A DNA stretch of 37,855 bases from Candidatus Gastranaerophilales bacterium (GTDB lineage: Bacteria; Cyanobacteriota; Vampirovibrionia; Gastranaerophilales; Gastranaerophilaceae): NCBI GenBank assembly GCA_944322935.1, contig CALUQO010000026.1, positions 1 through 37,855 on the forward strand, read 5' to 3'. The notes beneath the pieces were generated by a model. It ran no database searches. It was not told the DNA's origin and was given only the letters and a program-made list of their open reading frames with translations. The first letter of the stretch is position 1. Every line of letters starts with the position of its first letter. Both the position numbers and the translations under genes were made by a program. This document shows positions 7,816 through 33,668 of this stretch, one piece after another.

Positions 7816-8958
7816 CTAATATTGTGATTCAATACCCATCTGTTCAAAGAATTTTCTGTTATTTTCTTCTATGTACTTTCGGTCAATTGATTTTTTTATG
7901 TCTTGGAGGGTATTAACACTATCTTCACATTTATTTAAATAATTGTCCAATGCTTTAAAATCAACATTAATGCCTTTTTGCAAATAATTTTCTTTGTAAT
8001 AATCCTTCAGTAAGCGGATTTCTTTTCTTGCATTAGTTTTACAATCATCAACAATATATTCATACATATTGCGGATTTCTTCGTCAGTAGGATTATTATT
8101 TTTGTTTTTATTGTACTTATCAATAAAGGCCTTTATCTCTTGTTTATTTTGATTGAATCTGTCCATGTCTTTGATAATAGAATCGCAAGACTGCTGCATA
8201 TGTTCAATACTTGTGAGTGTTTTCATCAAAGATTGAGAGGGTTGTTTTACCTCTTTACCCATTTCTTTAAAAGCTCGCAGCATCATATAAGTTTCAGGCA
8301 AAGGCATGAGCATCGCATAAGAAATAGCTTGAACATGTTTGTTTGTTAAATCAGCAATTTTTTCTTTCAGTGGAAGTGATGAAGATTGTATTGTTCTATC
8401 CTCGTTAAACAAGAATATGCTATGCTCCATTTTTTTATATCTATTGACTAAAGGTTTTATTTTTTCCAGCTCTGTATTATTTTCAAACAAAATATTTTCT
8501 GTATTTTTAACAGCCTCATTCATTTCCGGAGTTTGATAAATTGTATCGCTTGCAAGTGATTTTATTCTTGCATAATTGTTCAAATTGGTTTTGTATCTGT
8601 TGTAACGTATAATATAGGGTTGATACTGCTGCAGGTTTTTATCAAATTCCGCTGTAGCTAAACTTTGTTTTAATATTGTTGAGTCCATCTCCCCAGAAGA
8701 AACTTTCTTCATAATTGAGCTGATATCATTGTTAATATCTATCAAAGCCTGATATGTTCCTTTGTTTTCATTAACAAAAGGCATAATTTTGCTGTTTATT
8801 GTTTTTTCTAAATTATCATAAGCGTTCTGTATAAAACTCCCGCCGAAACTGACGGTATCTTTTTTTAATCCGTAGTTTGCTATTGAATTTGATACGGCTT
8901 TTTTATTGTTAAAGTTTTTTGTGTGCATCAACTGAATAGATAACGGCAGTATTTTCAT
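7816..8958 (-). CDS. Lineage-specific coiled-coil protein with N-terminal SFGG motif
   Basis: 380 residues, no family recognised. The N-terminus (MKILPLSIQL...) is polar and carries DTVSFGGS at 34-41 without a classical signal peptide. The rest is almost entirely helical, rich in Lys, Asn, Glu and Ile, with heptad-like stretches (for example 255-300 and 330-375), and probably forms coiled coils. The SFGG motif matches the PAFG, TPFK and VSFKG motifs near the N-termini of three other proteins in this window. It starts 8 bases after rlmN on the same strand, so it is probably translated from the rlmN transcript. Confidence 0.7.
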   Translation of the reverse strand: MKILPLSIQLMHTKNFNNKKAVSNSIANYGLKKDTVSFGGSFIQNAYDNLEKTINSKIMPFVNENKGTYQALIDINNDISSIMKKVSSGEMDSTILKQSLATAEFDKNLQQYQPYIIRYNRYKTNLNNYARIKSLASDTIYQTPEMNEAVKNTENILFENNTELEKIKPLVNRYKKMEHSIFLFNEDRTIQSSSLPLKEKIADLTNKHVQAISYAMLMPLPETYMMLRAFKEMGKEVKQPSQSLMKTLTSIEHMQQSCDSIIKDMDRFNQNKQEIKAFIDKYNKNKNNNPTDEEIRNMYEYIVDDCKTNARKEIRLLKDYYKENYLQKGINVDFKALDNYLNKCEDSVNTLQDIKKSIDRKYIEENNRKFFEQMGIESQY

Positions 8959-11760: not shown

Positions 11761-13290
11761 ATGAAAGTCCAGACAAATTACAATTATTACATTCCTGATA
11801 AAGGTAAACCTGCATTCGGAAATTATGTAATAGATAAAAGAATCGGCAGGGCTGTAGGGGTATTAGTTCCGAAAAATATTAAAACATTTTATGCTTTGGG
11901 CAAAAACAACGGAGAGAATTTAAACAACATTGTTACTGCGGTAGGTACAGCAGGTGTTGCTCCTATTTTTATCAGGTTTAACCCGTTATCTGATGAAGAC
12001 CCGAAAGTTAAAGCTTACACATCCTGGAGACAGCCGTTATCAGCTGGTCTTGCTCTCGGGGTTCAATTGCCGGTTATGACTATATACAACTATCTTCTTG
12101 ATAAATGGGCAACTTCAGGAAAAGTAAGAAGAATAGACTTAAGCGCAAAACCTCCTGAGGCCATTCTTAAAACTTATGCAAAATCAAGATACAATCAAGA
12201 ACTCAGAGAATATTTTGCTGCAGGAAATTCCGTTGAAGATATGAATGAAAAATTCTTCAAAGGCCGTAATAAGCAACAGTATATAGAAGATATTATTCAA
12301 GAAGCAAGAAACAACATTTTCTATGCTCAACGAGACAAAATTCGCAGACTTGCCAAAGAAGACAAACCTATAACAACTTCTGTTTTGCGAGATGAAAACG
12401 GCAAAGTTAAAGATTGGTTCCATCCGACAAAGTTGAGCGAAATAAAAGACATTGAATTTGTAAAACCCGACGAACTTGATAAAGCAAGAAAAGATGTATA
12501 CGGAAAAGTACTTAAAGAATTTAATATAAATCCCGACGATAAAAAGCTGTTTAATATAAAAATCGACTGGGAAGACAAAAAGGCTGTTGAAAAATATAAA
12601 AAAATGAAATCGGGAGAAATTCCGGTAACAGAATCTTTAAAGGATTATAAAAAATCTGCTGTTAAAAGTGCCCTCAGAAAGGCCGGTGCCAGATACAAAG
12701 ATTTCAAAACACAATTAGAAAAAGTAGCAGAAGATGAAGCTATCCGCAGAGTAAAAAAAGAACTGCTTGAAGAGTCAAAAGTCAAGCTGGAAACATCTAA
12801 AGCATTCAATGAGTTAAAAAGCAAATTTATTCTTGAGAAAAAAAGAATATTGGATGACAAAAATATTTCTGTTGACCAAAAAGAGGAACACATCCTCGAG
12901 GCTGAAAAGAAATTAGTCGCTAAAAAAGTTGAAAATTTGGAAAATCGTCTTGCTAAAATACCTGCAACTGATGATGCCGCAAGAAAAACTTTAATTCGTG
13001 CGATTGATAAAATTAAAAACAAAAGAATCAAAGACATAAGATTGCATGGCTTGACATTAGAAGAAGTAGAAACAAGCGTAAAGGCAAAAAAATGGCTTAG
13101 AGCGGAAATCAACAGACGAGAAGGCGTGTTTAAAAACTTTAAAAAATTAAGCGGTCTTGTCTTCGGTCTTGCAATTCTTCCGTTCACCTGCGGTTTGCTC
13201 AACTGGGCATATCCAAGGGTTATGGAAAAATGCTTCCCTAAATTGTGTCAGGCTAAAAAGCAAGCAAATGCAGCAAAGGAGGCTAAATAA
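11761..13290 (+). CDS. Lineage-specific membrane-associated protein with N-terminal PAFG motif
   Basis: 509 residues from ATG 11761, chosen because AAGG lies 8 bases upstream and the N-terminus MKVQTNYNYYIPDKGKPAFG matches related leaders in the window. PAFG is at 17-20. Hydrophobic segments lie at about 60-75 and 95-125 (QPLSAGLALGVQLPVMTIYN) and near the C-terminus (about 465-490, LVFGLAILPFTCGLLNWAY). A long, highly charged helical/coiled-coil region of about 300 residues lies between them (KKELLEESKVKLETSK...). The family is unknown. It overlaps the next gene by one base (TAATG), so the two products are probably made in fixed proportion. The architecture suggests a membrane-anchored spacer or scaffold; this is inference. 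Confidence 0.7.
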   Translation: MKVQTNYNYYIPDKGKPAFGNYVIDKRIGRAVGVLVPKNIKTFYALGKNNGENLNNIVTAVGTAGVAPIFIRFNPLSDEDPKVKAYTSWRQPLSAGLALGVQLPVMTIYNYLLDKWATSGKVRRIDLSAKPPEAILKTYAKSRYNQELREYFAAGNSVEDMNEKFFKGRNKQQYIEDIIQEARNNIFYAQRDKIRRLAKEDKPITTSVLRDENGKVKDWFHPTKLSEIKDIEFVKPDELDKARKDVYGKVLKEFNINPDDKKLFNIKIDWEDKKAVEKYKKMKSGEIPVTESLKDYKKSAVKSALRKAGARYKDFKTQLEKVAEDEAIRRVKKELLEESKVKLETSKAFNELKSKFILEKKRILDDKNISVDQKEEHILEAEKKLVAKKVENLENRLAKIPATDDAARKTLIRAIDKIKNKRIKDIRLHGLTLEEVETSVKAKKWLRAEINRREGVFKNFKKLSGLVFGLAILPFTCGLLNWAYPRVMEKCFPKLCQAKKQANAAKEAK

Positions 13291-14069
13291 TGAATATTTC
13301 ATCCATTAAAAATTTAGCTTCAAGATGCGCTGACAGAACAATCGGTTTTGCAAACAGAGTTTCTTCAAAAGCAATGGATTCAAAAGTTGCACATACTCTT
13401 ATGCCGGAAAATCCTACAGATATAGCAAAATTACTTGCTTTGATTTCCACAACAACAAAAGACATTGTTAACTGTTATTATTACACAACTCAGAGTTACA
13501 ACAACAAAAAAATACCAGAAGATAACAGAAAATTTGTTGCAGGTATTGACCTTGCAAACGGCATATTAAATGTTATAACACAATTAACTCTCGGGTTGTG
13601 TATCAATAAATGGTCTGACAAATTATATGAACGCATATTCAAAGGCGGATTTGTACCGACTAAAGAGAAAATTGATGATTATACACATAGGGTAAACCAA
13701 TTCCTTAAAAAATCAGTATTAACAGAAAATATAAGATGTTCGGAAATTGATATAAGAGAAGCAATTAAAAGGACAAACAAAGTTGCCAAAGGCGGTTTTG
13801 GTGTTATCGCTGTATTGATAGTAACACAAATCATAGCCAAACGTATGATTGTTCCTTTCTTATCCACTCCGTTGGCCGGTGTTTTCAAAAATCAACTGGA
13901 TAAAATGGAAGCCAAAAAGAAAGGAAAATCACCCGAAAATGATACTGCTCAAAATACAAATGCAGTTCAAAACATAAACGCAACTACTCCAGAGAAATCT
14001 GTACAGCAAACAGATCACGCACGTGAAACATTCAAAGGTTTCGAGCAATTATTACCCAAACAAATTTAA
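13290..14069 (+). CDS. Membrane protein, probable distant relative of the preceding gene product
   Basis: 259 residues, unknown family. Two hydrophobic regions are seen: about 82-110 (DLANGILNVITQLTLGLCINKW) and about 165-195 (GGFGVIAVLIVTQIIAKRM followed by VPFLSTPLAGVF). Their order and flanks resemble those of the 11761 protein but without the long charged insertion: a helix ending in xxKW, and a Gly-rich start to the last helix followed by P-rich residues and KMEAKKK/QAKKQ. I infer distant homology. The C-terminus is a polar Asn/Thr/Gln tail. It begins within the stop codon of the upstream gene. Confidence 0.65.
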   Translation: MNISSIKNLASRCADRTIGFANRVSSKAMDSKVAHTLMPENPTDIAKLLALISTTTKDIVNCYYYTTQSYNNKKIPEDNRKFVAGIDLANGILNVITQLTLGLCINKWSDKLYERIFKGGFVPTKEKIDDYTHRVNQFLKKSVLTENIRCSEIDIREAIKRTNKVAKGGFGVIAVLIVTQIIAKRMIVPFLSTPLAGVFKNQLDKMEAKKKGKSPENDTAQNTNAVQNINATTPEKSVQQTDHARETFKGFEQLLPKQI

Positions 14070-14099: not shown

Positions 14100-14609
14100 A
14101 TGAAAATATCACCTATTTTGCATCCGTATTATAGTAATACAACAAAATCAAACAAAAATACTCCATTTAAAAGAGATGTCACAACCAAAGAAAATATTAA
14201 CGGGGTTATACAATCTTCCTTAAAAGATTCTGAAAAAAAGTTAATTTTAGATGCATACGACAAATGTAAAGAATATATAGACGGCTTAGATGCCGATATA
14301 AATTTAAGATATAGCCCGAACAAGCAAAAAAAATCGTGGTTTTCTAACGAATATGTTTTTCCTGAGGAATTAGGTTTTATGGTTAAAGCCAAAAATATCG
14401 GCAGAGAGATTGTACCTATGTCCGTTGATGTGCTTGATGATGTAAAAAAAGGAATAGAGCTTGATACTCTTGTTGATAAACTTAAAATTATGACAAGAGA
14501 TACGGTTGATGATATAAAACAAAGCATTACATATCATCCCAGCGGTGACGATGATTTTTACAGAGATAACACAGGTACCTGGGATTTGACTGACGCTTAT
14601 ATCCCATAA
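14100..14609 (+). CDS. Small lineage-specific protein with N-terminal TPFK motif
   Basis: 169 residues, unknown. AGAGG at 14087-14093 precedes the ATG by a normal distance. The leader MKISPILHPYYSNTTKSNK is followed by NTPFKRD (20-26), which resembles the PAFG/SFGG/SFKG motifs elsewhere in the window. The middle is helical and mixed-charge, and the C-terminus is acidic and aromatic (DDDFYRDNTGTWDLTDAYIP). It has no membrane segment. It is the third gene of the cluster beginning at 11761 and ends 5 bases from the convergent permease gene, leaving no room for a separate terminator. Confidence 0.6.
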   Translation: MKISPILHPYYSNTTKSNKNTPFKRDVTTKENINGVIQSSLKDSEKKLILDAYDKCKEYIDGLDADINLRYSPNKQKKSWFSNEYVFPEELGFMVKAKNIGREIVPMSVDVLDDVKKGIELDTLVDKLKIMTRDTVDDIKQSITYHPSGDDDFYRDNTGTWDLTDAYIP

Positions 14610-16101: not shown

Positions 16102-16455
16102 ATGGTTAATTCTATCAGTTCATATTCAACCTCCGGTGTTCAATCAACAAGTACAAATCAGCTGAGCGAAGAAGAAAAGAAAAAGAAAAAAGCTCAGGAA
16201 GACGGACTATATTCATATAATAATCAATCAAGCACTACTTCTGAAAATACTTCTACTACACAGGTGACAGAAGATACTGCGCGCTCAACAGCGCAATCTT
16301 ATATTGCAAGTTTGAAAGCGCAGTATCCTCAGCTTGCGTCAAAACTGGATGCTTATTATTCAAGTTTGGACTTTTCTTCTTTAATTCAGGATGCAACTTC
16401 GGTATCTGATATAAGAGCCTACATTTACAGTGAAACTCAAGGCTTTTTAAAATAA
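16102..16455 (+). CDS. Small Ser/Thr-rich protein
   Basis: 117 residues from ATG 16102. AAGGAG at 16091-16096 is five bases away, so the upstream in-frame start at 16084 is rejected. The N-terminal half is Ser/Thr/Gln-rich with an EEEKKKKK charge block (about 23-32) and looks disordered. The C-terminal half (about 60-117) is a compact, probably helical domain (ARSTAQSYIASLKAQYPQLASKLDAYY). It has no signal peptide and no known family. A well-formed terminator follows, so the gene is expressed as a single unit and probably strongly. Confidence 0.65.
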   Translation: MVNSISSYSTSGVQSTSTNQLSEEEKKKKKAQEDGLYSYNNQSSTTSENTSTTQVTEDTARSTAQSYIASLKAQYPQLASKLDAYYSSLDFSSLIQDATSVSDIRAYIYSETQGFLK

Positions 16456-32186: not shown

Positions 32187-33668
32187 ATGCCAATAAATAT
32201 TACTGCATTAAATTCGGCATGTCTGGGATTATCTTATAAAAAAAATAAATTGTCCGAAAAAAATGAGCTACCCTCAGCCGCTAAGCCGTCAATAAAAAAT
32301 AATTTTGCGCTGTTTGATATGAACAGAGCAATGTTTAATCGTTCACTTGTTTCATTTAAAGGATATTACGGCGACCCGCAGCCGCTGAAAAAACTCTTTT
32401 GGATTTCAACAGGACGAAACGATGTGTATGAAGATAACTGGACAAAAGACCACTTGTATCAGGTCGGTACAAAAAAATGGGTGAATGCTCATCCCGCAGA
32501 GCTGTTGAAACATACACCAGAACAGACAATACAATCACTATGTACGCTTATTAAGCCTGATAATCAGTACCCCGGTATACCTCCTTATATTCCGTCGCCT
32601 AATTTTGGGGATAAATGGGGTAGACGGGCAAATTACATAGAAATAAACCCGCGTGTTATCGCAAAATATGACAATAACAGCAACAGGTTAACAGACGGGC
32701 TGTTGAATACAATGAAGCTTATGAGGGCAATACCTACTTCGCCAAATTCTTTTGCAAACTGTATTGTTCTTTCGCAGTTGTATCCGTGTATTTATGGGGA
32801 CGGATATAACGATGCCGCTTCATTATATTGTGCTAACCTTCACACGGGAATAAGCCAGACACTCACTGCTGACGGTCTTTATGCAAAAATGGGTGCAGAT
32901 GAACAGGTAAAAGCCTTTAATGATATGGCTCACCTGCTTGGCTTTAAAACAGCCTTTAGAATTCCTTTATCGGCAGGTCAATTACGTATACAGGGACGTG
33001 AATTTAACTGGTATGACCATGAAAAAGCCTTTATTGATGCATGTGTGTGGGGCATAGAACTTGGGTTTGATGCAATATACTTTGACAGCGCAAAACATAT
33101 TACAGACAGAAACGGTTATAGCGGTGTAGGTGATTTGCCCAATAAAAACCAGATGGGCTATATTTTATACAAAATAAGAGAACAAACCGGACGCAGTGAT
33201 TTGGCTTTTGTCGGAGAAAAATGCGATAACAGATACGACTATAAGGAAATGGGCTTTACCGCAGGTACGGACTGGGGCAAGGCTGATGATTTCAACAGTG
33301 TAAGATGGGAATCTGAACAGCAAAGCTGGTCAGGAGAATACGCAGGCGGGCCGGAAGTATCTAATGACAACGATGATGGCGGAATTTTTTATCCGCAAAG
33401 GCTTAACAGAATTAATTCCTGTTTGTTCGGTTACAGAAATATAGGCGAAAAACTGCCTTCATTTATGCAAATGCACGATATCTTCCCTTTGTCACCTTAT
33501 TCAAATACCCATGAGGTTATGATGCACGCAAAACAAATGAGCGGTTCTGATGCCTGGACAAAATGCGAGCGTCATTATGACGGTGCCTTTAATACAAGCC
33601 CGGCTGCAAATGATTACAGAAACAATGTCTATCATATTTTTGAAAACGTCATAAAAACATACGGGTAA
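32187..33668 (+). CDS. Divergent GH13-like (alpha-amylase superfamily) protein with N-terminal VSFKG motif
   Basis: 493 residues. After a polar leader and VSFKG (55-59) comes a TIM-barrel-like region. Several elements match amylase regions: GFDAIYFDSAKH (293-304, region II, nucleophile D300), LAFVGEKC (339-346, region III, acid E344) and FMQMHDIFP (427-434, region IV, stabiliser D431). The arginine two residues before the nucleophile is replaced by tyrosine (Y298), and region I (LGFKTAFRIPL, 251-261) lacks its usual D and N-H. It is therefore a remote relative, perhaps with changed chemistry or no activity. No ribosome site precedes the ATG, and a TATAAT (32180-32185) ends just before it, so the true start is less sure. 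No signal peptide. Confidence 0.6.
   Translation: MPINITALNSACLGLSYKKNKLSEKNELPSAAKPSIKNNFALFDMNRAMFNRSLVSFKGYYGDPQPLKKLFWISTGRNDVYEDNWTKDHLYQVGTKKWVNAHPAELLKHTPEQTIQSLCTLIKPDNQYPGIPPYIPSPNFGDKWGRRANYIEINPRVIAKYDNNSNRLTDGLLNTMKLMRAIPTSPNSFANCIVLSQLYPCIYGDGYNDAASLYCANLHTGISQTLTADGLYAKMGADEQVKAFNDMAHLLGFKTAFRIPLSAGQLRIQGREFNWYDHEKAFIDACVWGIELGFDAIYFDSAKHITDRNGYSGVGDLPNKNQMGYILYKIREQTGRSDLAFVGEKCDNRYDYKEMGFTAGTDWGKADDFNSVRWESEQQSWSGEYAGGPEVSNDNDDGGIFYPQRLNRINSCLFGYRNIGEKLPSFMQMHDIFPLSPYSNTHEVMMHAKQMSGSDAWTKCERHYDGAFNTSPAANDYRNNVYHIFENVIKTYG

What the first reader, a model, noticed from the sequence alone, without database searches (positions are those of the whole stretch)
8839..8850. Shared N-terminal motif ([PVT]-[SA]?-F-[GK]-[GNR]) in four unrelated proteins: possible new sorting or processing signal
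SFGG (8839-8850, coiled-coil protein), PAFG (11809-11820, membrane protein), PFK (14163-14171, small protein) and VSFKG (32349-32363, amylase-like) all lie within residues 17-60. Each follows a polar Asn/Ser/Thr/Lys-rich leader, and none has a classical signal peptide. The proteins are otherwise unrelated, so descent from one domain is unlikely. I recall similar leaders in other gut Melainabacteria proteins. A targeting, modification or cleavage signal is the simplest explanation.
Basis: partly seen in the sequence, partly recalled or inferred. Interest (0 to 1): 0.75.

Follow-up and report, generated by a model that had tools for sequence, protein, structure and literature searches.

The report
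Conserved SFxG tag at protein N-termini
Dozens of otherwise unrelated proteins in an order of non-photosynthetic gut cyanobacteria start with a variable polar leader ending in a conserved Ser-Phe-Lys/Gly-Gly tag, which is real, under selection and probably an unknown protein-targeting signal.

Summary
The four motifs are at the stated places. In 36% of the genome (713 called genes), [SNTA]F[KG][GA] occurs in residues 4-65 of 32 proteins against 9 in composition-preserving shuffles (z 7.5; without the window 30 vs 8.7). The 32 share no homology beyond the N-terminus and use 29 different 12-base spellings, so this is a protein-level short motif, not a domain or a DNA element. In orthologues of the four window proteins the leader diverges, but the Phe is kept (16/16, 26/28, 9/9, 20/20), and so, less strongly, is an 'M-[KRN]-[IV]-x-P-[IL]-S'-like start. 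Families f1, f4, f5, f6 and f7 of the order (Gastranaerophilales) show it; other orders of the class and other phyla show no excess. Leaders are Asn/Gln/Ser-rich and Asp/Glu-poor, with no Sec signal. The best mechanism I can offer (inferred) is an uncleaved export signal for a second, flagellum-derived type III apparatus that the order keeps even where flagella are lost. Against it: no clustering near that apparatus, cytosolic-type cargo (radical SAM, Cdc48-like), and orders that have the apparatus but not the motif. An intracellular docking tag is nearly as likely; cleavage is less likely.

The parts
8839..8850 (-). SFGG motif, residues 37-40 of the coiled-coil-like protein; leader MKILPLSIQLMHTKNF... 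(residues 1-36)
   Evidence: orthologues DTVSFSG / SFKA / SFGS; Phe in 16/16 while leader identity is 0.25 and motif 0.66
7816..8958 (-). gene of the SFGG protein (380 aa), no confident Pfam family
   Evidence: 53% identity in nearest relatives, same family f1 only
11809..11820 (+). PAFG(N) motif, residues 17-20; leader MKVQTNYNYYIPDKGK
   Evidence: AFGN, AFKS, AFKA, AFRA; SFKG in family f6 (L178), SFGC in f5 (L186); Phe in 26/28
11761..13290 (+). gene of the PAFG protein (509 aa, one C-terminal membrane-like segment)
14163..14171 (+). PFK(R) motif, residues 22-24; leader MKISPILHPYYSNTTKSNKNT
   Evidence: TPFKR, TSFKR, ASFKK in 9 orthologues
14100..14609 (+). gene of the small PFKR protein (169 aa)
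32349..32363 (+). VSFKG motif, residues 55-59, directly before the conserved domain (YYGDPQPLKKLFW)
   Evidence: Phe in 20/20, SFKG in 18/20; motif identity 0.93 vs leader 0.31
32187..33668 (+). gene of the amylase-like protein (493 aa); starts MPINITALN, orthologues MI.AI
   Evidence: no Pfam, NCBIfam or PDB sequence match
13290..14069 (+). neighbour gene with an MNISSI-type start but no N-terminal motif; carries TFKG near its C-terminus (14028-14039)
   Evidence: the C-terminal copy is probably chance, as there is no C-terminal excess

Best explanation
Shown: Gastranaerophilales proteins carry a two-part, lineage-specific N-terminal short linear motif: a start like M-[KRN]-[IV]-x-x-[IVL]-[ST], a polar acid-poor linker of 0 to about 50 residues, and [SNTA]-F-[KGSTCQ]-[GA] placed in front of the folded part. 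It is selected at protein level and sits on unrelated families. Inferred: it is an uncleaved targeting signal read on the disordered N-terminus. Most likely it marks substrates for a second, flagellum-derived type III export apparatus (T3SS-2: FliE-, FliF-, FliH-, FliI-, FlhA-, FliP- and rod-like proteins) that the order keeps even when flagella are lost. A soluble FlhA-C-like protein that I found only in this order may act as substrate receptor.
For: Motif real and N-terminal: 32 vs 9.1, no homology among the 32 and 29 distinct 12-mers. Conserved against a diverging leader. Present without flagella: G061 has no flagellin, one FliP and no flagellar FlhA but 10 wide-motif proteins vs 2.3 expected. 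T3SS-2: second FlhA in most of the 40 order genomes and in all 19 family f1 genomes of the class sample, including flagellum-free ones; FliP kept, rod genes kept, FliF/FliH/FliI adjacent. Soluble FlhA-C-like ~490 aa protein found across the order but not in other orders, roughly the range of the motif. Leaders enriched in Ser/Asn/Gln and depleted in Asp/Glu compared with the rest of the same proteins (p 1e-4 to 1e-6); Ser enrichment and Leu/Glu/Asp/Ala depletion are the published bias of type III effectors (PMC2669295). In one 5'-nucleotidase-like family the tag stands where distant homologues in other orders have a hydrophobic Sec-like signal.
Against: No motif genes near T3SS-2 (0 of 125 flank genes against about 5.6 expected). 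Other orders (f9, f14) have T3SS-2 at 60-68% identity without motif excess. Some carriers look cytosolic: a CxxxCxxC radical SAM protein (L046:7541), a Cdc48-like AAA protein (L053:10527) and an HTH-repeat protein. Known type III signals have no strict consensus. The match of motif and soluble FlhA-C range rests on one clade. Nothing here shows secretion.
Confidence: 0.35

Rival explanations
1. Intracellular docking tag: the motif binds a lineage-specific adaptor, scaffold or compartment inside the cell and recruits unrelated enzymes to it. No export and no cleavage.
For: Carriers include radical SAM, Cdc48-like AAA, GNAT, HTH and amylase-like proteins, few membrane proteins (4/31 vs 30%), no clustering near T3SS-2, and minimal tags such as MNI-SFKG that suit a docking peptide.
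Against: No binding partner, shell protein or scaffold was identified; none was searched for systematically. The acid-poor Ser/Asn/Gln leader is not needed for docking.
Confidence: 0.33
2. Cleaved leader: a protease removes everything up to SFxG and activates or releases the protein.
For: In several families the conserved domain starts directly after the motif (YYGDPQ..., ITKIYAISDSHQ...) and the leader is free to vary.
Against: Minimal leaders of 3-7 residues (MNISFKG, MKSTVNFKG, MNNTISFGA) make a propeptide pointless. The start MKI..I is itself conserved. Residues around the Gly vary (G/A/N/S/R). No protease was linked.
Confidence: 0.1
3. Export or surface targeting by a machinery other than T3SS-2, not recognised here.
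For: Leader composition and replacement of a Sec-like signal in the 5'-nucleotidase-like family; the restriction to the order suits a lineage-specific machine.
Against: No candidate found; other secretion systems were not searched for.
Confidence: 0.15
4. Statistical artefact of AT-rich, Asn/Ser/Lys-rich N-termini or of gene-start errors.
Against: Shuffles that keep composition give 9 not 32; low-GC outgroups (655 genes) and other low-GC orders show no excess; orthologues keep the motif at 20-50% protein identity.
Confidence: 0.04

Closest known systems
N-terminal secretion signals of type III effectors (injectisome and flagellar)
   Same: N-terminal, uncleaved, disordered, Ser-rich, poor in Asp/Glu/Leu, on unrelated proteins scattered over the genome (composition: PMC2669295)
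   Different: Those signals have no strict sequence consensus; here a short motif is conserved, cargo includes cytosolic-type enzymes, and export is untested
Host-targeting motifs such as Plasmodium PEXEL (from my own knowledge)
   Same: A short motif within the first ~60 residues shared by unrelated proteins of one lineage
   Different: PEXEL follows a Sec signal and is cleaved; no Sec signal here and no sign of cleavage
Encapsulation peptides of bacterial microcompartments / encapsulin cargo tags (from my own knowledge)
   Same: Short terminal tags that recruit unrelated enzymes
   Different: Those are amphipathic helices or C-terminal tags; no shell protein was looked for or identified; the present tag is polar with a single SFxG
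Flagellar type III export apparatus (FlhA/FliP/FliI family)
   Same: The second apparatus has the same core parts
   Different: Kept without flagellin or flagellar FlhA; scores below the flagellar and SctV equivalog cut-offs; accompanied by a soluble FlhA-C-like protein

Membership tests
Type III secretion N-terminal signal | N-terminal, uncleaved, Ser/Thr/Pro-enriched, depleted in Leu/Glu/Asp/Ala (PMC2669295) | tested here: inconclusive
   Ser, Asn, Gln up; Asp and Glu strongly down; Leu slightly down; Thr, Pro and Ala unchanged against the rest of the same proteins. Cleavage not testable
Type III secretion N-terminal signal | The genome has a type III export gate independent of flagella | tested here: met
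   second FlhA, FliP and rod genes kept in genomes without flagellin or flagellar FlhA
Type III secretion N-terminal signal | Some effectors lie near apparatus genes | tested here: not met
   0 of 125 flank genes carry the strict motif (about 5.6 expected); only one case in the window's own genome, L048:13278
Type III secretion N-terminal signal | Secretion depends on the apparatus | not testable with these tools
   needs an experiment
Sec/Tat signal peptide or lipoprotein | N-terminal hydrophobic segment (and lipobox) | tested here: not met
   in 31 carriers membrane-like segments occur in 4 only, all far from the N-terminus; leaders polar
Shared N-terminal domain by descent | Homology among carriers | tested here: not met
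   no BLAST pair at E<1e-3 among 32 carriers beyond the N-terminus
DNA or RNA element in the 5' coding region | Conserved nucleotide sequence | tested here: not met
   29 distinct 12-mers in 32 genes, Ser by TCN and AGY, Gly by all four codons
Double-glycine leader (C39 peptidase) | GG/GA at the end of a conserved 15-30 aa leader | tested here: not met
   leader length 3-58 aa and variable; GG is rare

The most novel reading that the evidence does not exclude
A whole bacterial order uses a new consensus N-terminal signal (MKI..IS plus SFxG) to send dozens of unrelated proteins out through a flagellum-derived, non-flagellar type III apparatus, with a soluble FlhA-C-like protein as cytosolic receptor.
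Probability: 0.2. Interest if true: 0.88.

Novelty: new variant of a known kind. Interest (0 to 1): 0.62.

Why it matters
Gut Melainabacteria are common, almost uncultured, and full of proteins without known function. A tag that marks perhaps 60 of them per genome (32 in 36% of the genome, 9 of these expected by chance, scaled up; an inference) would give a handle on what they export or assemble. It would also offer a reason why flagellum-free members keep a partial flagellar gene set, which earlier papers read as incomplete flagella (PMC5877343).

Tried and rejected
DNA-level signal: rejected, synonymous codons vary freely. Common ancestry: rejected. Operon clustering of carriers: none (2 adjacent pairs vs 1.4 expected). 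C-terminal copies: no excess. First pass with a cruder gene caller gave weaker enrichment. AlphaFold on the SFGG protein without an alignment gave pLDDT 43.5 and is not used. Amylase-like and radical-SAM-like proteins have no PDB sequence match. Literature: no paper found on such a motif in these bacteria.

Full report
What was claimed and what is there. A sharper pattern shows that something real is underneath.

Enrichment. I sampled 41 stretches of the window's genome (838 kb of 2.32 Mb), called 713 genes with a codon-model script, and counted [SNTA]F[KG][GA] in residues 4-65: 32 proteins, against 9.1 (sd 3.1) when each segment is shuffled, and 4 of 557 in residues 101-162. Without the window it is 30 against 8.7, so the signal does not rest on the case that suggested it. 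Among 102 proteins whose start resembles M.[IVL]..[IVL][STN...], [SNA]FKG is found in 11 where 0.7 are expected. The tag lies mostly in the first 65 residues and falls to background after about 70.

Not a domain, not DNA. The 32 proteins show no BLAST similarity to each other beyond the N-terminus, and the motif is spelled by 29 different 12-base sequences. Minimal forms exist: MNI-SFKG, MKSTV-NFKG, MNNTI-SFGA, MINKQSV-SFKG.

Selection. In orthologues of the four window proteins the leader changes in length and sequence (mean pairwise identity 0.16-0.31 per column) while the motif columns stay at 0.52-0.93 and residues 2-7 at 0.39-0.58. The Phe is kept in 16/16, 26/28, 20/20, and in all nine true orthologues of the PFK protein (the two other matches are poor local hits). 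In the PAFG family, members from other families of the order read SFKG (f6, L178) and SFGC (f5, L186).

Range. A relative of the same family without flagella (G061) has it: [SNTA]F[KGTSCQR]G in 10 proteins vs 2.3. Smaller samples of families f3, f4, f6 and f7 pooled give 13 vs 4.1; convincing individual cases are in f4, f6 and f7. Other orders of the class (f8, f9, f10, f12, f14) show no excess, nor do 1,394 genes from about 67 loci of other phyla (these are flagellar neighbourhoods, so not a random sample). The order is Gastranaerophilales, judged from the titles of close relatives.

Carriers. About half have no known family. The rest include a Cdc48-like AAA ATPase, another AAA protein, a radical SAM protein with CxxxCxxC, an HTH-repeat protein, GNAT, amidohydrolase, alpha-amylase-like, M16 peptidase and metallophosphatase/5'-nucleotidase. 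Membrane proteins are rare (4/31 vs 30%). Leaders are rich in Asn, Gln and Ser and poor in Asp and Glu compared with the rest of the same proteins.

A possible machine. Most of the 40 genomes of the order that I checked have a second full-length FlhA besides the flagellar one (two incomplete genomes showed none). In five flagellin-free members (G061, G043, G091, G023, G024) it is the only full-length one, with a single FliP and remaining rod-type genes. Its locus also encodes FliE-, FliF-, FliH- and FliI-like proteins. A soluble protein with only the FlhA cytoplasmic domain (about 490 aa) occurs across the order (a few genomes excepted) and was not found in other orders. Together with the leader composition, which partly matches the published bias of type III effectors, and a 5'-nucleotidase-like family in which the tag stands where distant homologues have a Sec-like signal (about 24% identity, so orthology is unsure), this makes type III export the best single mechanism I can offer. 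The link is circumstantial: motif genes are not near that locus (0 of 125), orders f9 and f14 have the apparatus but no motif excess, and several carriers look cytosolic.

Verdict. A real, lineage-specific N-terminal targeting motif (about 0.9 sure that it is real and selected). Its function is open: type III export 0.35, intracellular docking 0.33, other export 0.15, cleaved leader 0.10. These are judgements, not computed values.

Noticed in passing
L048:5493-13067 (own genome C28) and L205, L206, L207, L209, L210, L212, L215, L217: A second flagellar-type export locus (FliE-, FliF-, FliH-, FlhA-, often FliI-like), distinct from the flagellar FlhA, kept in flagellin-free members of the family. 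It may be the 'partial flagellar gene set' reported for these bacteria.
   Followed up: partly
L015:7155-8615: Soluble ~490 aa protein with an FHIPEP cytoplasmic domain (E 6e-54), found across the order and not in other orders of the class; a further 694 aa protein fuses the T3SS-2 neighbour's N-terminus type to an FlhA cytoplasmic domain (L052:7221-9305).
   Followed up: partly
L053:10527-12167: Bacterial AAA ATPase close to Cdc48/p97 (E 1e-74 to PDB chains) with a 240-residue novel N-terminus bearing the tag.
   Followed up: no
L061:7130-8572: 5'-nucleotidase-like family: tag in this order (NFKG, TFTG, SFGG, NFNG) where distant homologues in other orders have hydrophobic Sec-like signals.
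   Followed up: partly
window 32187-33668: Amylase-like family has a second copy in most genomes of the genus (about 45% identical, matching from residue ~65-78 on), so possibly without this leader.
   Followed up: no
window 16102-16455: Small protein MVNSISSYSTSGVQSTSTNQL..., very Ser/Thr/Asn-rich start without the SFxG tag.
   Followed up: no
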